NCBI RefSeq assembly: GCF_032102965.1
Contig: NZ_CP134880.1
Location: forward strand, 2,108,001-2,172,000
Source of the DNA: Demequina capsici
Lineage (GTDB): Bacteria > Actinomycetota > Actinomycetes > Actinomycetales > Demequinaceae
DNA: 64,000 bases
Direction: 5' to 3'
Within the stretch, counting starts at the first letter, position 1, and each line of letters begins with the position of its first letter. The notes under the pieces were generated by a model, which saw only the letters and a program-made list of their open reading frames with translations, made no database searches and had not been told where the DNA came from. The position numbers and the translations under genes were made by a program. Positions 33,641 to 44,428 of the stretch are shown piece after piece.

Positions 33641-34240
33641 TCACCCGTCCGTCGGGACGGCCGTGACCGACTTGAGCAGCGGCACCAGCACCTGATCGAC
33701 GATCTCGTCGACCGCGTCGCTGCCCACATCGCCTCCCTCGAACACGAAGTAGTGGCGCAGCAGCGCGACGATGCTTCCCGCGACGCGAGGCGGCACGGGC
33801 GCAGCACCGAGCTCGCCGCGCGCACGCGCTGAGGCGAACACCTCGTCGAGCATGCCGTTCGCGAACTCGAGCGTGACCCGCGCCACGTGTGCGACCGTGG
33901 CGTCGTCCACCTCACCGATGACACCACGGAAGGTCTGCACGCGCCCCTTGCCGATCCTCGTCATGACGGAGCGCATGAACAGCACCAGGTCGTCGCGGAG
34001 CGGGCCGACGAAGGGTGGGCGCGGCATCGAGAATCCACGGGCGATCACGGCGTCGATGACCATCTGCGCGCGCGAGTCGTAGCGACGATAGACCACCGGC
34101 TTGCTGGTGCCGGCACGCCGGGCGACCCCCTCGAACGTGACGCCCGCGTACCCACGTTCGTCGAGCTCCTCGCGCACGGCGTCGCGGATGGCATCCTCGA
34201 GCTCTTCCGCACGTCGTCGCCGGGCCGGGCTCTCACTCAT
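33641..34240 (-). CDS. TetR-family regulator
   Basis: 199 residues from ATG 34240 with AGGAGG seven bases upstream; the much longer open frame to 34942 is antisense to the next gene and was not used. The HTH is VTFEGVARRAGTSKPVVYRRYDSRAQM, and the C-terminus is a TetR_C-like domain. Divergent from a membrane protein whose promoter carries a 15-bp palindrome, so that gene is the likely target. Confidence 0.92.
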   Translation of the reverse strand: MSESPARRRRAEELEDAIRDAVREELDERGYAGVTFEGVARRAGTSKPVVYRRYDSRAQMVIDAVIARGFSMPRPPFVGPLRDDLVLFMRSVMTRIGKGRVQTFRGVIGEVDDATVAHVARVTLEFANGMLDEVFASARARGELGAAPVPPRVAGSIVALLRHYFVFEGGDVGSDAVDEIVDQVLVPLLKSVTAVPTDG

Positions 34241-34274
34241 CCGTGCTCCTCCTGCGCTGATCCGTCGGTGCGGG

Positions 34275-34317
34275 TTGACACTACGCCACCTCGTTTGGCT
34301 ACGATACGTTTCGTATC
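34275..34317 (+). promoter_or_regulatory. Promoter with palindromic operator before the YhgE-like gene
   Basis: TTGACA (34275-34280) and TACGAT (34300-34305) are 19 bases apart. The palindrome GATACGTTTCGTATC (34303-34317) overlaps the -10 and the expected start site. It is the natural target of the divergent TetR. Confidence 0.65.
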
Positions 34318-34345: not shown

Positions 34346-35341
34346 ATGTCCGACCACTCCCCCTCCGCAGCGACCAGCTGGCGCCCGGTCATCGGCCTCG
34401 CACTCGGCCTCGCGCTGCTGCTCAGCACCATGCTGATCGCCTTCGGCCTCCCGGCGGTGAAGAGCGGACCCCACGGCATCCCGATCGCGATCGTCGCCCC
34501 CGATGCGGTCGCCACCCAGATCACCGGAGCCCTCGAAGACGCCCAGCCAGGCGGCTTCGACGTCACGGCCGCCGCCTCCCGAGACGCCGCCGACCAGCTG
34601 ATCCGCGACCGCGAGGTGTACGGCGCGTTCATCGTGGGCGCCGACGGCCTCACTGTCGACATCGCATCCGCCGCCAGCCCCACCGTCGCCACCCTGCTGA
34701 CCACGATCGGCACCAATGCCGCAACCCAGTTGGGCGCGACGGCCACGGTCGACGACATCGTCCCGACCACCACCGAGGACCCCCGCGGCATCGGCCTGTC
34801 CGCAGGCGCCCTGCCGATCGCGCTCGGCGGGTTCATCGCCGGTGTCGCCACCACCCTGCTCCTGTCCGGCACCGCCCGCCGCCTCACCGCCATGGCGACG
34901 TTCGCCGTGGTCGCAGGCCTGCTCATGATGACGATCCTGCACTTCTGGTTCGGGTCCCTGTCAGGCAGCTTCTGGCTGACGGCCGCCGCGGCGACGCTCG
35001 GCATCCTCGCCACCGGCATGACGGTGCTCGGCATCGAGAGCCTGCTCGGCAGGCCCGGCATCGCGGTCGCCGCACTTCTCATCGTGTTCCTCGGCAACCC
35101 GCTGTCCGGCCTGACCTCCGCCCCCGAGATGCTCCCCACGCCCTGGGGCGCGATCGGCCAGCTGCTCCCGCCCGGCGCCACCGGCACCCTGCTGCGCAAC
35201 GTCGGATTCTTCGACGGCGCGGCCACGCTCAAGCCGGTGCTCGTGCTGCTCGCCTGGCTCGTGCTCGGGACCGCGCTCCTGGTCCTCTCGCAGGTCCGCT
35301 CCCGCTACAAGCCCGCGATCGAGCTGGTTCCGACCCGCTGA
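34346..35341 (+). CDS. Membrane protein of the YhgE/ABC-2 permease type
   Basis: 331 residues. One N-terminal membrane segment (about 14-34) precedes an external domain with IPIAIVAPD and a QITGALE stretch resembling the soluble part of YhgE/Pip and ABC-2 type exporters. Five further membrane segments follow from about residue 155. A conserved PLSGLTSAPEMLPTPWGAIGQLLPPGA loop lies near the end. It is probably an export-related permease, yet no ATPase is nearby. Expression is likely controlled by the divergent TetR. Substrate unknown. Confidence 0.8.
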   Translation: MSDHSPSAATSWRPVIGLALGLALLLSTMLIAFGLPAVKSGPHGIPIAIVAPDAVATQITGALEDAQPGGFDVTAAASRDAADQLIRDREVYGAFIVGADGLTVDIASAASPTVATLLTTIGTNAATQLGATATVDDIVPTTTEDPRGIGLSAGALPIALGGFIAGVATTLLLSGTARRLTAMATFAVVAGLLMMTILHFWFGSLSGSFWLTAAAATLGILATGMTVLGIESLLGRPGIAVAALLIVFLGNPLSGLTSAPEMLPTPWGAIGQLLPPGATGTLLRNVGFFDGAATLKPVLVLLAWLVLGTALLVLSQVRSRYKPAIELVPTR

Positions 35342-37663: not shown

Positions 37664-40408
37664 ATGTCTCTCGCTCTGCATCGCCTGGGCCGCTTCGTCG
37701 GCCGCCACCGGGCCGCCGTGCTCGTCGGCTGGCTGCTGCTCCTGCTGGTGGTGGGAGGCGCCTCCCGGGTCATGGGCTCGACCTTCGACGAGAACTACAC
37801 GATCTCCGGCACCGAGTCGCAGGAGGGTCAGGACGTGCTGGCCGCACGCTTCGGCTCCGCCGCGACCGGCGCCACGGCACAGGTCCTCTACCGCGTGGAC
37901 GCAGGCTCGGACATCACCACGGCGGGCGCACAGGCGACCATCGCGGACAGCCTCCGTGCCATCGCAGCGATCGACGGCGTCGCGAACGTCACCGACGCGG
38001 GCTCCCTGCCGGTGGACGATGCCGGCGACGCGACGCTCGCGACCGTCCAGTTCACGGACGAGCACCCCGACCACGCCACCCTCGACGCAGTGGAGGCCGC
38101 GGCGACCGTCGCGGACAACGGCGTGACCTCGACCATCGGCGGCAGCTCGTACGGGAACGGCACGGACGTCGGCGGGCACACGTCCGAGCTGATCGGCATC
38201 ACCATGGCGCTGCTCGTGATGGTCCTCACGTTCGGCTCGCTGCTGGCCGCCGGCATGCCGATCCTCACCGCCCTGGTGGGAGTCGGCACCACGTTGTCCG
38301 CGATCACCCTGCTCACCCACGTCACGTCGGTGTCGAACGCGGCGCCCGCGTTCGCGTCGATGCTGGGGCTCGCGGTCGCGATCGACTACTCGCTGTTCAT
38401 CCTGTCGCGGCATCGCGCCGAGCTCGCCGCGGGCGCGCAGCCGCGCGAGGCCATGGCACGTGCGCTCGCCACCTCAGGTTCCGCGGTGGTGTTCGCCGGG
38501 CTCACCGTCGTCGTCTCCCTGGTGGGCCTGGTGGTGGTGCAGATCCCCATGCTCACCGTCATGGCGCTGGGTGGCGCACTCGCCGTGACGATGGCGGTGC
38601 TTGCCGCGCTCACCCTGCTGCCAGCGGTGGCGCTGCTCGCCGGCGAACGCCTGCGGCCGCGTGCCGGCCGCACGGACAAGGCCGGCACGCGCGTGTCGGA
38701 ACGGTGGATCCGGAGCGTGACGCGACGCCCGCTGGTCACCATCACGGCGGTCGTCGTGGTCGTCGGCGCCATCGCCGCGCCAGCGTTCTCGATCAGGCTC
38801 GCGCTGCCCGACGCCGGCACCCAGCCCGTCGGGACGGCGGCACGCGACCACTTCGACGCGGTGGCGGACACGTTCGGACCTGGGTACAACGCCCCGCTGC
38901 TCATCACGGCGGACATCCTGGGCTCGACCGACCCGGTGCAGACGGTCCAAGACCTGTCCGACGCGGTGGCCGCGCTTCCCGGAGTCGCCGCCGTGTCCAA
39001 GGCGACCCCCAACGCATCCGCCGACACCGCGCTCCTTCGGGTCATCCCCGAGGGCGGGCAGTCCGACCCTGCGACGGTCACGCTCGTGCAGACCATCCGC
39101 GACAACGCTGCCGCCGTGGAGGCCGAGCTCGGAGTGGGCGACGTCCGCGTCACCGGCACCACCGCCATCAACATCGACGTGTCCCAGCGCCTGTCCGACG
39201 CGCTGCTTCCTTTCGGCCTCACCGTCGTCGGCCTTTCGCTGGTGCTGCTCCTCATCGTCTTCCGCTCCGTCGCGGTGCCCATCAAGGCGACCGTCGGCTA
39301 CGTGCTGTCCGTCGGCGCCGCGTTCGGCGCGATCGTCGCGGTGTTCCAGTGGGGCTGGCTGCCGTTCATCCTGGGAGGCAACGAGCCGGGCCCGCTGGTG
39401 AGCTTCCTTCCGATCCTCGTGATGGGCGTGCTGTTCGGCCTCGCGATGGACTACGAGATGTTCCTGGTGAGCCGCATGCGGGAGGAGTATGCGCACAGCG
39501 GTGATGCCACGCGGGCGATCCGCGTCGGGTTCTCGCACTCCGCACCCGTCGTCACGGCCGCCGCCGTCATCATGGTGAGCGTCTTCGTGGCCTTCCTCCC
39601 CGGAGGCTCCACCACCATCAAGCCCATCGCATTCGGCCTCGCGGTGGGGGTGGCGGTGGACGCCTTCCTGGTGCGCATGACGCTCGTACCCGCGGTGCTC
39701 ACACTCCTCGGGGATCATGCCTGGAAGATGCCCGAGTCCTGGAAGCGGAGGCTCCCCACCGTGGACGTCGAGGGCGACGCCCTGGTGCGTCAGACCGCCG
39801 TCGGCTCCTCGCCCGAGGCGTCGTGCGCCCTGTCCGCGCTGGACGTCACCGCCCGCCTCGGAGACCTCCCGGTCACGGTCCAGGCCGCCCCGGGCCAGAT
39901 CGTCATCCTGGACATCCCCGACACTGACGCTCAGGTCGCGCTCGGCGCGGTCCTCACCGGACGTGCGCACGCCTGGTCCGGCGATCTCGTGGTGGACGGC
40001 ATGATTCTGCCCGAACGCGCAGGCGAGGTGCGCGCACGCTCCGCGGTGGCCACACCGGAGGGCGTCGACCAGACCCGCACCGCAGCGCACGAGGTGCGGG
40101 CCACGCTGACGCTCGCAGGAGCGCGACGCCGGAACCTCACGGATCGCACCGCGCACGCGCTCGGGCTGCTCGCCGCGCTCGACATCCCCGCCGACGCGCA
40201 CCTGGCGGCGCTCGACGAAGCCGACCGACGTGCCGTGGTGGCCGTGTCCGCCCTCGCCGCCGGCGCCCGACTCATCGTGCTGCCCGGCGCCCCTGACCAC
40301 GACCTCGCCGCCCTGCTTGCGGGGCACGGCGCCTCGGTCGTCCTGTTCGCCCCCGTCCGCGCCACGCTCACCCGCACCGGCGCCCAGCAGCTCGAGATCG
40401 GAGCCTGA
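37664..40408 (+). CDS. MMPL/RND-family transporter fused to a degenerate ABC-ATPase-like domain
   Basis: 914 residues from ATG 37664; longer frames upstream are antisense to the desulfurase gene. Residues 1 to about 695 are a complete MMPL transporter: a TM near 17-35, an external domain, five TMs, a second external domain and another TM block with GLAMDYEMFLVSRMREEY. The extra C-terminal 200 residues (about 705-914) follow the layout of an ABC nucleotide-binding domain: GDLPVTVQAAPGQIVILDI, SGDLVVDGMILPERAGEVRA, and a degraded signature/Walker B stretch LDEADRRAVVAVSALAAGA. The P-loop is gone, since DIPDTDAQVALG replaces GxxxxGKS, so ATP hydrolysis is unlikely. It is followed two bases later by a YhgE/Pip gene and a two-component system. 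Confidence 0.9.
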   Translation: MSLALHRLGRFVGRHRAAVLVGWLLLLLVVGGASRVMGSTFDENYTISGTESQEGQDVLAARFGSAATGATAQVLYRVDAGSDITTAGAQATIADSLRAIAAIDGVANVTDAGSLPVDDAGDATLATVQFTDEHPDHATLDAVEAAATVADNGVTSTIGGSSYGNGTDVGGHTSELIGITMALLVMVLTFGSLLAAGMPILTALVGVGTTLSAITLLTHVTSVSNAAPAFASMLGLAVAIDYSLFILSRHRAELAAGAQPREAMARALATSGSAVVFAGLTVVVSLVGLVVVQIPMLTVMALGGALAVTMAVLAALTLLPAVALLAGERLRPRAGRTDKAGTRVSERWIRSVTRRPLVTITAVVVVVGAIAAPAFSIRLALPDAGTQPVGTAARDHFDAVADTFGPGYNAPLLITADILGSTDPVQTVQDLSDAVAALPGVAAVSKATPNASADTALLRVIPEGGQSDPATVTLVQTIRDNAAAVEAELGVGDVRVTGTTAINIDVSQRLSDALLPFGLTVVGLSLVLLLIVFRSVAVPIKATVGYVLSVGAAFGAIVAVFQWGWLPFILGGNEPGPLVSFLPILVMGVLFGLAMDYEMFLVSRMREEYAHSGDATRAIRVGFSHSAPVVTAAAVIMVSVFVAFLPGGSTTIKPIAFGLAVGVAVDAFLVRMTLVPAVLTLLGDHAWKMPESWKRRLPTVDVEGDALVRQTAVGSSPEASCALSALDVTARLGDLPVTVQAAPGQIVILDIPDTDAQVALGAVLTGRAHAWSGDLVVDGMILPERAGEVRARSAVATPEGVDQTRTAAHEVRATLTLAGARRRNLTDRTAHALGLLAALDIPADAHLAALDEADRRAVVAVSALAAGARLIVLPGAPDHDLAALLAGHGASVVLFAPVRATLTRTGAQQLEIGA

Positions 40409-40410
40409 CC

Positions 40411-42360
40411 GTGCGATCACCCCTGTCCCGCCCGACCGCCCTCCTGGCGCTCGCAGGCATCGCGGTTCCCGCGCTCGGCGCAGCGCTCCTGTCGTGGAGC
40501 GTGTCCGACCGCGTCGGCTCCTTGTCCGACGTGCCCGTCGCGATCGTCAACGACGACCAGATCATCACCGGCGACACACCCATGGCCGCCGGCCGTGCGC
40601 TGTCGGACGCGCTGATCCACCCGTCCACCACCGACCAGCCGACGCTCGGCTGGGAGCTCACCAACGACGACCTCGCCGCGCAGGGCCTTGCCGACGGCAC
40701 GTACAGTGCCGTCCTGACCATCCCCGAGGACTTCTCCTCCTCCGTGCTGTCGCTCGCAGGCGACTCACCGAAGCAGGCCGAGCTGTCGCTCGAGACCGAC
40801 CCCGCCTCGTCCGCGAGCGCTGCTGCGATCTCCCAGCTCGTCAGCACCGCAGCCGCGGACGCCTTGGGCACGCAGGTGTCCGAACAGGTGCTCACCACCA
40901 CGTACGAGGGCCTCGGTACCCTGTCGTCGTCGCTCGCGGACGCGTCCTCGGGGGCGGCACAGGCGGACGACGCGGCGCAGTCCCTGGCCGACGCCGCGTC
41001 ACAGGTCGACGACGGCGCGAGCAGCCTGGCCGACGGCCTCGGGGCGCTCGGGACGGGCGCGAGCGGGGTCGCGAGCGGAAGCCGGGGCATCGCCGACGGT
41101 GCCGCGCAGGCGGCGTCTGGGGCAGCCTCGTTGTCCTCCGGGGCGGCCGGGCTCGCCTCGGGCGCCTCAGACCTGGCCGACGCCACGGCACAGGTGGCGG
41201 CAGGAGCGGCCAGCTCCGCCTCGGGTGCGCGTGCGCTCGCCCAGTCGCTCACCGCCCTGTCCGCCTCATGTTCCGCCGCAGGAGGGAGCGCCGCGTACTG
41301 TGCCCAGCTCGCGGCGGCGTCCGGCGGCGCGGAGACCCTCGCAGCCGGACTCGACGTCCTCACGACCGGCACGTCGGGCGTCGCCACGGGCACCGCCACG
41401 CTCGCCTCCTCGGCCGACACCCTCGCCTCCGGCACCGCGGCCACCGCCACGGGGCTGGAGACGCTGGCCGCCAGCGCTGCGCAGCTCGCCGACGGCGCCG
41501 CCGCCGTGAGCCAGGGCATCGGCGACGTCTCGGACGGCGCCTCCTCGCTCGCAGACGGCACCGCTCAGCTCGCCTCCGGCGCGGCCGGCCTCACCGAAGG
41601 CACCGGCGCCCTGGCCGATGGCCTGGCACAGGCCTCCGCGCAGGTTCCCTCCTACACCGACGACCAGGCCTCGGCCATGGCCACCGTCGTCGCGCAGCCC
41701 GTCGCGCTCAGCTCCAGCTCCGACTCCAGCGCCGGCGGCTGGGGCGCAGCCGCGATCCTCACGATCGTGCTGTGGCTGGGGCCGCTCACGGTCTGGGCCA
41801 CGGGGCGTCGGGCCGGGACCGCCGCCGTCCTGGCGACCCCCGCGTCCGCGCGACGCATCAGCCGTTCGCTCACCCGGCCCGCACTGCTGCTGGCAGCAGC
41901 ACAAGCGGTCGCCGCCGTCGTCGTCCTTGCCTGGAGCGGGACCACCCTGAGCGCGCCGTTGGCGCTCACCGCGCTCTCCGTGCTGGCAGCCGCCGCGTTC
42001 GCGCTGCTCGCTCTCGGGTTCCGGGCGTCCCTGGGCCGCTACGCGCTCGCCGCATATGCGGGACTCGCGCTCCTCCAGATGGCGACGCTCACAGGCGTGC
42101 TCCCGGTGCAGACGGCACCCGCACCGCTCGGCGCGCTCGCCTCGCTGCTGCCGGCGACAGCGTTCATGGACGCCGCATCGTCCCTGGCAGGGGACCCGAC
42201 AGGCAACTCACTGGCCGTCGCGATCGTGTGCCTCGTCGCGTGGGGAGCGCTCGGGAGCGTTCTGCTGCGTCGACGCGTTGCCAAGGTGGACCTTCCGCGC
42301 CCGCGGTCACGCGCACTTTCCCTCGCGTCCGCGGGCGCGGATGGCAGGATGGCCGCATGA
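40411..42360 (+). CDS. YhgE/Pip family membrane protein
   Basis: 649 residues from GTG 40411, two bases after the MMPL stop. An N-terminal membrane segment precedes an external domain (VPVAIVNDDQIITGDTPMAAG), characteristic of YhgE/Pip. Residues about 165-415 are a long series of Ala/Gly/Ser-rich heptad-like repeats of the form LADGA..L.SGA, likely a coiled coil spanning the envelope. Five C-terminal membrane segments resemble ABC-2 permeases. Its role is probably in export or envelope function with the MMPL protein. The stop overlaps the response-regulator ATG. Confidence 0.9.
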   Translation: MRSPLSRPTALLALAGIAVPALGAALLSWSVSDRVGSLSDVPVAIVNDDQIITGDTPMAAGRALSDALIHPSTTDQPTLGWELTNDDLAAQGLADGTYSAVLTIPEDFSSSVLSLAGDSPKQAELSLETDPASSASAAAISQLVSTAAADALGTQVSEQVLTTTYEGLGTLSSSLADASSGAAQADDAAQSLADAASQVDDGASSLADGLGALGTGASGVASGSRGIADGAAQAASGAASLSSGAAGLASGASDLADATAQVAAGAASSASGARALAQSLTALSASCSAAGGSAAYCAQLAAASGGAETLAAGLDVLTTGTSGVATGTATLASSADTLASGTAATATGLETLAASAAQLADGAAAVSQGIGDVSDGASSLADGTAQLASGAAGLTEGTGALADGLAQASAQVPSYTDDQASAMATVVAQPVALSSSSDSSAGGWGAAAILTIVLWLGPLTVWATGRRAGTAAVLATPASARRISRSLTRPALLLAAAQAVAAVVVLAWSGTTLSAPLALTALSVLAAAAFALLALGFRASLGRYALAAYAGLALLQMATLTGVLPVQTAPAPLGALASLLPATAFMDAASSLAGDPTGNSLAVAIVCLVAWGALGSVLLRRRVAKVDLPRPRSRALSLASAGADGRMAA

Positions 42361-43052
42361 CGTCCCGCGTGCTCGTCGTGGACGACGACGAGGAGATCCG
42401 CACGATGCTCGCGTCCACCCTCGCGTTCGCCGGGTTCCAGGTGGACCTCGCCGAGGGCGCGACGCCCGCGCTCGCCTCCCTGGCTGCTCACCGGCCCGAC
42501 GTCGTCATCCTCGACGTGACGATGCCAGGCACCGACGGCTACGACCTGGTGCAGCTCATCCGCAGCCGCGACGCCGACCTCCCCGTGCTGTTCCTCTCCG
42601 CCCGCGACGCCGTCGAGGACAGGGTGCGCGGCCTGCGCCTGGGCGGCGACGACTATGTCACCAAGCCGTTCAGCGCCGTCGAGGTGGTGGCCCGCATCGA
42701 GGCGCTGATGCGCCGCGGGTCACGCACCGAAGCGGCGGACGATCCACGGATGCTGCGCCTCGCCGACCTCACGATGGACCTCGCCGCGCATCGCGTGGAA
42801 CGTGAGGGCCGTGAGATCTCGCTCTCCCCCACCGAGTTCCGCCTGCTCGAGCTGCTGCTGGTCAACGCCGGCCGCGTGCTGTCCAAGGGGCAGATCCTGG
42901 AGGACATCTGGATGTACGACTTCGGTGGAGACACGAACGTCGTCGAGCGCTTCATCTCCAACCTGCGCCGCAAGGTCGACGACGGGCACACCCCGCTCAT
43001 CCACACGATCCGCGGCTTCGGCTACTCGCTGCGCACCGCCGACGGTGCGTGA
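42357..43052 (+). CDS. OmpR/PhoB-family response regulator
   Basis: 231 residues from ATG 42357, overlapping the YhgE stop as ATGA. The receiver domain (1-120) has the acidic pocket DDD at 9-11, the phospho-acceptor Asp 53 in VVILDVTMPG and Lys 103 in VTKPF. The C-terminal winged helix (about 135-231) carries ISLSPTEFRLLELLLVNAG and NVVERFISNLRRKVD. It receives phosphate from the kinase encoded next and probably regulates this operon or envelope genes. The much longer open frame around it is spurious. Confidence 0.96.
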   Translation: MTSRVLVVDDDEEIRTMLASTLAFAGFQVDLAEGATPALASLAAHRPDVVILDVTMPGTDGYDLVQLIRSRDADLPVLFLSARDAVEDRVRGLRLGGDDYVTKPFSAVEVVARIEALMRRGSRTEAADDPRMLRLADLTMDLAAHRVEREGREISLSPTEFRLLELLLVNAGRVLSKGQILEDIWMYDFGGDTNVVERFISNLRRKVDDGHTPLIHTIRGFGYSLRTADGA

Positions 43053-44428
43053 CGATGCGTTCGATCAGGGCACGCCTCACCGTCACGCTGTCCGCGCTCA
43101 CGGCCGCCGTCGTGCTCGGCGCCGCCATCGTCGGCTCGATCGCCGTGCCACCCCTCCTGCAGCAGCGGTTCGCGGACCAGCTGGAGTCCGCGGCCACGCG
43201 CGCGTCGGCAAGCCTGGCGTCCGCCGGGGGCGCCGAGCTCACCGACCAGACGCTGCCCGGCATCGCGGGAGACAGCATGGGCCTCGTGCTGCTGTCCTCC
43301 GGGGAGCCCGTGGCCGCGAACGGTGTCGCAGCCGAGGACGTCTCCACCCTCGCGGCGCTGAGTGTGACGGCCCCGACCGAGGTCGCCGGCCGCTACCTGG
43401 GCATGAGCGTCGACATGACCGGGCTCAACCTCACCTACCTCGATGCCGACGGCATCCAGATCCCGATCGACCGCGTCGTCCTCGTCATGCGCACCACCGA
43501 CCGCGAGGAGGTGATCGCCACGATCGCCACCTGGCTCCTGCTCGGCGGCGTCGCCACATCGGCCCTCTTGATCGCAGTCGCAGCCATCGTCGTCGCGCGG
43601 GGCATGCGTCCGCTCGAGGCGATGGCGGACCGCGCCGAACGGATCGCGTCCGGGGACAGATCCCTGCGGCTCAGCCCGGGTTCGAGCGGCGACCCCGCGA
43701 TCGACCGGATGGCCTCGACGGTCGACGCCGCGCTCGACTCGCAAGAGCTCGCCGAGCAGCGGCTGCGCACCTTCCTGGCCGACGCCTCGCACGAGCTCCG
43801 CACACCGCTCACCACAGCCTCGGGCTGGGTGGACCTCTACCTGCGCGGCGGCCTGGAGGATCGCGAACGCCTGGACGATGCGATGACGCGCGTGGACACC
43901 CAACTCACCCGGATGCGCCTCATGACCGACGAGATGCTCGCGCTGGCGCGCACCGACGCAGGCCGTCCGCTGGACCGGCAGCCTCTGGATCTCGCGGACA
44001 TCGCGCGGGACGTGGTGAGCGACGCCCGGATCGCAGCGCCGGAGCGATCGATCGTGTGCACCGCGTCGGACGCGGCGCTGATGCGTGGCGACGAGGCGCG
44101 CCTCGCTCAGGTCGTCCGCAACCTCGTCGGCAACGCCGTGCAGCACACGCCTGCAGATGCGACCATCACCGTGCTCGTGGAGCCAGGTGCGGAGCAGCAC
44201 GTGCTGCGGGTGCTCGACACCGGCCCTGGCATCGCGGCTGCCGACGTCCCCCACCTGTTCGAGAGGTTCTGGCGAGGCGGGGCTGCCCGCTCGGCGCGCG
44301 GCGGCGCGGGCCTGGGCCTCGCGATCGTTCAGGCGCTCGTGGAGCAGCACGACGGGACGGTCGCTGTGGCGAGCACGCCTGGCCAGGGCACCGAGTTCAC
44401 GGTCACGCTGCCGATCGCGCGCGGCTGA
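43049..44428 (+). CDS. Sensor histidine kinase
   Basis: 459 residues from GTG 43049, overlapping the regulator stop (GTGA); ATG 43055 is possible. Two membrane segments (about 13-35 and 160-182) bracket an external sensor domain of about 125 residues. A HAMP linker follows, then the dimerization domain with the phospho-accepting His 248 in DASHELRTPLTT. The ATP-binding domain has the N box NLVGNAVQHTPADA, the G1 box DTGPGIA and the G2 box GGAGLGLAIVQALVEQHDGT. All catalytic elements are present. It partners with the adjacent regulator. Confidence 0.96.
   Translation: MTMRSIRARLTVTLSALTAAVVLGAAIVGSIAVPPLLQQRFADQLESAATRASASLASAGGAELTDQTLPGIAGDSMGLVLLSSGEPVAANGVAAEDVSTLAALSVTAPTEVAGRYLGMSVDMTGLNLTYLDADGIQIPIDRVVLVMRTTDREEVIATIATWLLLGGVATSALLIAVAAIVVARGMRPLEAMADRAERIASGDRSLRLSPGSSGDPAIDRMASTVDAALDSQELAEQRLRTFLADASHELRTPLTTASGWVDLYLRGGLEDRERLDDAMTRVDTQLTRMRLMTDEMLALARTDAGRPLDRQPLDLADIARDVVSDARIAAPERSIVCTASDAALMRGDEARLAQVVRNLVGNAVQHTPADATITVLVEPGAEQHVLRVLDTGPGIAAADVPHLFERFWRGGAARSARGGAGLGLAIVQALVEQHDGTVAVASTPGQGTEFTVTLPIARG

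What the first reader, a model, noticed from the sequence alone, without database searches (positions are those of the whole stretch)
37664..44428. MMPL transporter fused to a P-loop-less ABC ATPase, with YhgE and a two-component system
The MMPL protein carries an extra C-terminal 200 residues that follow the layout of an ABC nucleotide-binding domain (strand order, a degraded signature and Walker-B-like stretch), but the P-loop is replaced by DIPDTDAQVALG. A YhgE/Pip gene follows after two bases, then a response regulator and kinase with overlapping starts. In related clusters, as I recall, a free-standing ATPase sits between MMPL and YhgE. Here it appears captured and inactivated, perhaps as a scaffold joining an RND pump to an ABC-2-like permease. 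This may be an undescribed proton-driven hybrid export or envelope system with its own sensor.
Basis: partly seen in the sequence, partly recalled or inferred. Interest (0 to 1): 0.82.

Follow-up and report, generated by a model that had tools for sequence, protein, structure and literature searches.

The report
Proton pump wearing dead ABC motor
In this actinobacterium a membrane pump of the proton-driven RND/MMPL family carries at its end a domain predicted to fold like the ATP-burning motor of ABC transporters but lacking its ATP-binding motif, and the next gene encodes a membrane protein predicted to be the matching ABC-type channel, so two pump families are likely joined into one machine that would run on protons instead of ATP.

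The parts
37664..40408 (+). MMPL (RND) transporter with fused C-terminal ABC-derived domain, 914 aa
   Evidence: PF03176 E 4.5e-77
37664..39751 (+). MMPL core, residues 1-696; Asp-Tyr pairs D241-Y242 (38384-38389) and D596-Y597 (39449-39454) present
   Evidence: the pairs are invariant in 108 of 108 tailed rows and 35 of 35 others
39752..40405 (+). pseudo nucleotide-binding domain (predicted ABC fold), residues 697-914
39911..39946 (+). place of the lost Walker A/P-loop: DIPDTDAQVALG, residues 750-761
40211..40231 (+). degenerate signature place LDEADRR, residues 850-856; hhalign sets LDEAD against LTESQ of a free-standing homologue
40271..40288 (+). degenerate Walker B LIVLPG, residues 870-875; hhalign sets LIVL against LLLV of the free homologue, whose next residues are DD
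   Evidence: sequence
40411..42360 (+). YhgE/Pip family protein, 649 aa, GTG start two bases after the MMPL stop
   Evidence: TIGR03061 100.8 bits, cut-off 96.15
41722..42297 (+). YhgE membrane domain, residues 438-629, predicted type V ABC permease fold
42357..43052 (+). OmpR-type response regulator, 231 aa
   Evidence: PF00072, PF00486
43049..44428 (+). sensor histidine kinase, 459 aa
   Evidence: PF00512, PF02518

Best explanation
The MMPL tail is a predicted ABC nucleotide-binding fold without its ATP-binding residues, homologous to free-standing neighbours of other YhgE genes, and it likely docks the YhgE permease onto the MMPL pump so that MMPL's proton flow would drive or gate YhgE. Shown by calls: the tail family is homologous to ABC-like proteins encoded just upstream of other YhgE genes; 50 of 50 tailed MMPL genes with room downstream in loci fetched by MMPL are followed by YhgE; the ABC catalytic residues are gone in the window while the MMPL Asp-Tyr pairs are kept; the tail evolves under constraint in the one pair compared. 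Predicted: the tail's fold and YhgE's type V permease fold. Inferred and untested: that the tail sits where a normal ABC motor holds its permease, that MMPL and YhgE form one complex, that proton flow replaces ATP, and that the long-helix part of YhgE carries or guides an envelope substrate outward.
Against: The AlphaFold2 model used relatives that keep a P-loop, so it is not independent of them. 31 of 112 tails keep a P-loop, so nucleotide binding may matter in those lineages. In 29 of these 31 the Walker A to Walker B distance is 64-65 residues against 119-150 in five free homologues, so a subdomain that normally helps to hold the permease is missing there. dN/dS of the helical part is 0.99 over 40 codons (one pair of genomes). 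The linkage count is not corrected for ancestry: the 32 tail-less rows of the tree are one clade. Forty of 126 YhgE starts have no such partner nearby, so the domain is not needed by every YhgE-like protein. No substrate is known.
Confidence: 0.55

Rival explanations
1. The tail is a regulatory domain of MMPL: ancestral forms sensed nucleotide with the P-loop and the window form now only relays YhgE or envelope state to the pump, without any shared transport cycle.
For: 31 of 112 tails keep GxxxxGK[ST] with a Walker B Asp, but none of those 31 has Glu or His at the aligned catalytic columns (two of them have His one place on), which fits binding without turnover.
Against: The YhgE neighbour and the homology to free YhgE neighbours tie the domain to the permease rather than to MMPL alone.
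Confidence: 0.2
2. The pseudo-domain pairs in trans with a competent ABC ATPase encoded elsewhere, as in heterodimeric ABC transporters with one dead site, and ATP still drives YhgE.
For: ABC motors work as dimers and pairs with one weak site exist (TAP, CFTR; recalled). The same genome has a free YhgE-neighbour protein with a P-loop-like GDRGSGRT at L159:6493-7206.
Against: That protein sits beside its own YhgE and has Arg for the P-loop Lys; none of 57 free partners has Glu or His at the aligned catalytic columns, 5 and 6 of them being gaps there. No canonical ATPase lies in the four-gene set.
Confidence: 0.15
3. The tail is a decaying relic without function.
For: Loss of the catalytic motifs; neutral-looking rate in the helical part.
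Against: The two RecA-like parts look constrained (dN/dS 0.29, 0.34, one pair); the P-loop-less form is shared by a clade (support 100) of seven proteins, the window and six named as Demequina, Microbacterium or Nocardioides; the fold is predicted with high confidence.
Confidence: 0.07
4. The tail is an ordinary MMPL C-terminal extension of the MmpL3 kind.
For: Long cytoplasmic tails occur on MmpL proteins (recalled).
Against: ABC fold; the best stretch of the MmpL3 model ends at residue 697; 32 tail-less relatives have 8 to 105, median under 30, residues after residue 700.
Confidence: 0.02

Closest known systems
MMPL/MmpL RND transporters (PF03176; MmpL3, MmpL5, MmpL7)
   Same: Core of residues 1-696 and Asp-Tyr pairs (role of Tyr-Asp pairs in MmpL3: passages of PMC10171966)
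   Different: Carries an ABC-fold tail and is followed by YhgE; below the MmpL3 model cut-off (183 of 1400 bits)
MmpL7 with DrrABC in PDIM export
   Same: An RND pump and a type V ABC exporter serve one envelope export route (abstract of PMC11539658)
   Different: There DrrABC is described as indeed an ABC transporter, in separate proteins; here the ABC domain is fused to the RND pump and has lost its catalytic motifs
YhgE/Pip family (TIGR03061) and EsaA of type VII secretion
   Same: N-terminal YhgE model above cut-off, xxxLxxG heptads above cut-off; EsaA N-terminal model matched below its cut-off (43.7 of 122 bits)
   Different: C-terminal model TIGR03062 below cut-off (48.7 of 102.2); partner domain supplied by MMPL
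Type V ABC exporters (ABCG, ABCA, ABCH)
   Different: Motor domain without Walker A, Walker B, signature or H-loop residues and carried by another transporter
ABC pseudo-sites (TAP1, CFTR; recalled)
   Same: ABC fold with degenerate catalytic motifs
   Different: There a second, working site remains in the same complex (recalled); none was found in this gene set

Membership tests
MMPL/RND transporter | PF03176 above gathering score | tested here: met
   259.7 bits, cut-off 20.5
MMPL/RND transporter | two Asp-Tyr proton-relay pairs (their helix numbers, 4 and 10, are recalled) | tested here: met
   D241-Y242, D596-Y597; invariant in 143 of 143 rows
MMPL/RND transporter | proton-driven transport | not testable with these tools
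   needs biochemistry
MmpL3 (NF052608) | score above model cut-off | tested here: not met
   183 bits of 1400
ABC nucleotide-binding domain, fold | ABC fold by structure comparison | tested here: met
ABC nucleotide-binding domain, sequence | PF00005 match of the window tail | tested here: not met
   no Pfam hit for the window tail; 8 of 59 family members match PF00005 at E up to 0.1
ABC ATPase (catalytic) | Walker A GxxxxGK[ST] | tested here: not met
   DIPDTDAQVALG in its place
ABC ATPase (catalytic) | LSGGQ signature | tested here: not met
   LDEAD at the aligned place
ABC ATPase (catalytic) | Walker B Asp and catalytic Glu | tested here: not met
   LIVL is followed by PG, not by acidic residues
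ABC ATPase (catalytic) | H-loop His | tested here: not met
   VVLFAP at the aligned strand end
YhgE/Pip | TIGR03061 N-terminal model above cut-off | tested here: met
   100.8 bits, cut-off 96.15
YhgE/Pip | TIGR03062 C-terminal model above cut-off | tested here: not met
   48.7 bits, cut-off 102.2
Type V ABC permease | membrane-domain fold | tested here: met
Type V ABC permease | works as a dimer with two motor domains | not testable with these tools
   no complex prediction offered

The most novel reading that the evidence does not exclude
A hybrid RND-ABC export machine: a proton-driven MMPL pump has taken over the motor domain of a type V ABC exporter, discarded ATP hydrolysis, and uses the dead domain as a mechanical coupling that makes proton flow work the YhgE permease and its long-helix stalk. 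YhgE at large would be an ABC-type permease whose partner is a pseudo-ATPase.
Probability: 0.35. Interest if true: 0.92.

Novelty: new variant of a known kind. Interest (0 to 1): 0.74.

Why it matters
RND pumps and ABC exporters are treated as separate superfamilies with different energy sources. Here their parts sit in one polypeptide plus its neighbour gene, in many genera, with the ATP site eroded while the Asp-Tyr pairs are invariant. If proton flow works an ABC-type permease through a dead motor domain, it would be a new way to energise a transporter. It also gives YhgE/Pip, known mainly as a phage-infection protein of unclear activity (recalled), a predicted fold, a predicted partner and a testable role.

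Tried and rejected
Ordinary MMPL extension: rejected on the predicted fold and on tail-less relatives. Tail identified by sequence alone: not possible for the window. A word search with the window tail reached only two further proteins, one of them at E 0.025, so I recentred on a P-loop-bearing relative, L042 (69 hits, 64 with PF03176, 27 of these also with precomputed PF00005; only the 7992 candidates sharing most words were scored).

My own codon-score gene caller missed some YhgE and partner genes: the first linkage count gave 65 of 84 tailed MMPLs with YhgE and the first partner census was lower; I replaced both by HMM searches of all open frames and inspected the exceptions L037, L090, L233 and L044. 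In L043-L128, L085 had no MMPL called and the genes near a contig end in L074, L081, L086 and L118 were set aside; L081 nevertheless shows YhgE. Before the motif count 11 of 159 proteins without my anchor motif were dropped; of the other 148, 112 have long tails, 32 short ones and 4 other lengths. The tree used 143 rows; of 36 labelled tail-less, 32 form one clade, and L074, L086, L090 and P0058 are cut off, frame-broken or recorded as partial. It is a FastTree tree, unrooted; five changes of P-loop state is a parsimony count and the direction (loss) is inferred. My split of tails by total length as a proxy for the helical subdomain was too crude and is not used. The 116 loci behind one search are matches listed (partly the same genomes) that I chose, not a random sample. 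The 40 YhgE starts without partner are 18 in nine tandem YhgE pairs, 12 short YhgE-like proteins (L285-L296), one at a contig edge (L193) and nine full-length ones (L205, L208, L212, L213, L216, L217, L224, L226, L230). Some 'free' hits are weak (32 to 80 bits); all 57 were looked at in alignment. VIA-align and Foldseek lists are capped at 50 rows.

Paper searches: YhgE with MMPL (two papers), YhgE and ABC (20 of 33 listed), fusion terms, pseudo-ATPase terms (12 of 72), YhgE and ATP-binding protein (15 of 498), MmpL5 (8 of 15), YhgE and EsaA (12 of 142). I saw titles and abstract beginnings only; in those nothing described the fusion. Subscription journals are not held.

Full report
What is there. 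The window lies in a genome whose same-genus relative G011 encodes P0002, recorded as Demequina sp. NBRC 110052. An MMPL gene (37664-40408, 914 aa), a YhgE/Pip gene (40411-42360), a response regulator (42357-43052) and a sensor kinase (43049-44428) follow each other, with two bases and then overlaps between them.

The site is dead. DIPDTDAQVALG stands where L042 has EGARPCGKSALL. In a profile alignment with free-standing homologues LDEAD stands against LTESQ at the signature, and LIVL is followed by PG where the homologue has LLLV and DD. Across 112 tails 31 keep GxxxxGK[ST]; those 31 have Asp plus Asp (30) or Asn (1) at Walker B, never Glu, and none has His at the H-loop column (26 Gln; two have His one place on). 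In 29 of the 31 the distance from Walker A to Walker B is 64-65 residues, in P0056 and P0065 131 and 135, against 119 to 150 in five free homologues where both motifs could be read. So 29 P-loop-bearing tails have lost the stretch of the helical subdomain, while the window tail keeps about that length but has lost the P-loop. Erosion took different routes in different lineages.

It is a family. MMPL proteins with such tails bear record names of Pseudonocardia, Mycobacteroides, Amycolatopsis, Promicromonospora, Micromonospora and others, and lie in named genomes of Microbacterium, Nocardioides, Agromyces, Kutzneria, Cutibacterium, Dermabacter and more; the tree labels show at least eight families. 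On that tree of 143 MMPL cores the 32 intact tail-less rows are one side of a branch (support 99), and the window joins its Demequina relative, Microbacterium enclense and four Nocardioides proteins in a group of support 100, all without a P-loop; the P-loop state needs five changes.

It belongs with YhgE. Among loci fetched by MMPL (L043-L128) with room downstream, 49 of 50 tailed MMPLs have YhgE next and 1 of 32 tail-less ones by HMM (Fisher p 2.7e-20, not corrected for ancestry). The missing case, L090, does have YhgE, in another frame of a frame-broken record; the odd tail-less case, L044, is a permease beside canonical ABC genes. So 50 of 50 against 0 of 32.

Where the tail came from. A survey of YhgE by TIGR03061 in 99 genomes of the order and 148 of the class (partly the same genomes) led to 116 fetched loci. 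Of 126 YhgE starts in them, 57 have a free-standing homologue of the tail just upstream, 29 the MMPL fusion, 40 neither; none of the 57 has an MMPL on the same strand within 5 kb in the fetched stretch. In a control of 590 other genes 16 had a hit upstream, 8 of them at 30 bits or more. The window's own genome has a second YhgE locus of the free kind (L159). hhalign of the window clade against seven free homologues gives E 5.5e-9 over 188 columns. The free homologues are themselves odd: 8 of 57 have GxxxxGK[ST], 28 have Arg at the Lys column, none has Glu or His at the catalytic columns (5 and 6 gaps), and LSGG occurs in one (L177), away from the signature place. The profile of seven of them is closest to ABCA3 and ABCA7 in PDB.

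The proton side. The Tyr-Asp pairs needed for proton relay in MmpL3 (passages of PMC10171966) have counterparts in D241-Y242 and D596-Y597, invariant in 108 of 108 tailed and 35 of 35 other cores.

Selection. Between the window and L031, dN/dS (Nei-Gojobori) is 0.21 for the core, 0.41 for the tail, 0.33 for YhgE, 0.25 for the kinase; within the tail 0.29 and 0.34 for the two RecA-like parts and 0.99 for 40 codons of the helical part (one pair, short blocks). This fits a domain kept as a fold rather than as an enzyme.

Mechanism. The same domain is found free beside YhgE or fused to an MMPL beside YhgE. A fusion often reveals a partner: the domain would touch YhgE, and when fused it would tie YhgE to MMPL. 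I take it that the dead domain holds the YhgE permease at the cytoplasmic face of MMPL and that conformational change in MMPL, fuelled by protons, is passed to YhgE. Docking, complex and energy coupling are inferred. The precedent for an RND pump and a type V ABC exporter in one export route is MmpL7 with DrrABC (abstract of PMC11539658), as separate proteins.

Novelty. Precomputed domains show PF03176 with PF00005 in 27 of 69 hits, but in the paper listings I saw (titles and abstract beginnings, several lists capped) nothing described the fusion, its link to YhgE or the free partner family. The architecture is a new variant built of known families; a proton-driven ABC-type permease would be more than that.

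Noticed in passing
L159:6493-9406 (G000:C1 about 1439492-1442405): The window's own genome has a second YhgE gene with a free-standing ABC-like partner (GDRGSGRT, LTESQ, LLLVDDLD).
   Followed up: yes
loci L176, L178, L197, L198, L199, L201, L203, L204, L221: Nine loci carry two YhgE-like genes in tandem with no ABC-like partner found; perhaps heterodimeric permeases.
   Followed up: no
L163-L200 and L261-L281 (free partners): Free-standing YhgE partners form a large non-canonical ABC family; many have Arg for the P-loop Lys, and a group from the window's own order has lost the P-loop without fusion to MMPL.
   Followed up: partly
window 34346-35341, with a TetR-looking frame on the minus strand around 33641-34300: A 331-aa ABC2_membrane_3 permease (E 4.1e-11) next to a divergent gene that looks TetR-like by eye (not tested); no ATPase seen beside it.
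   Followed up: no
P0056, P0065: Two fusions of unnamed source keep both a P-loop (GAPGAGKT) and a long Walker A to Walker B distance (131, 135 residues); possible early forms of the fusion.
   Followed up: partly
P0016 (recorded as Austwickia): A tail with Walker B Asp-Glu and an H-loop-like His but no P-loop: the opposite pattern of loss.
   Followed up: no
L090: The Clavibacter michiganensis record changes frame between the MMPL tail and YhgE; a sequencing error or a broken gene.
   Followed up: no
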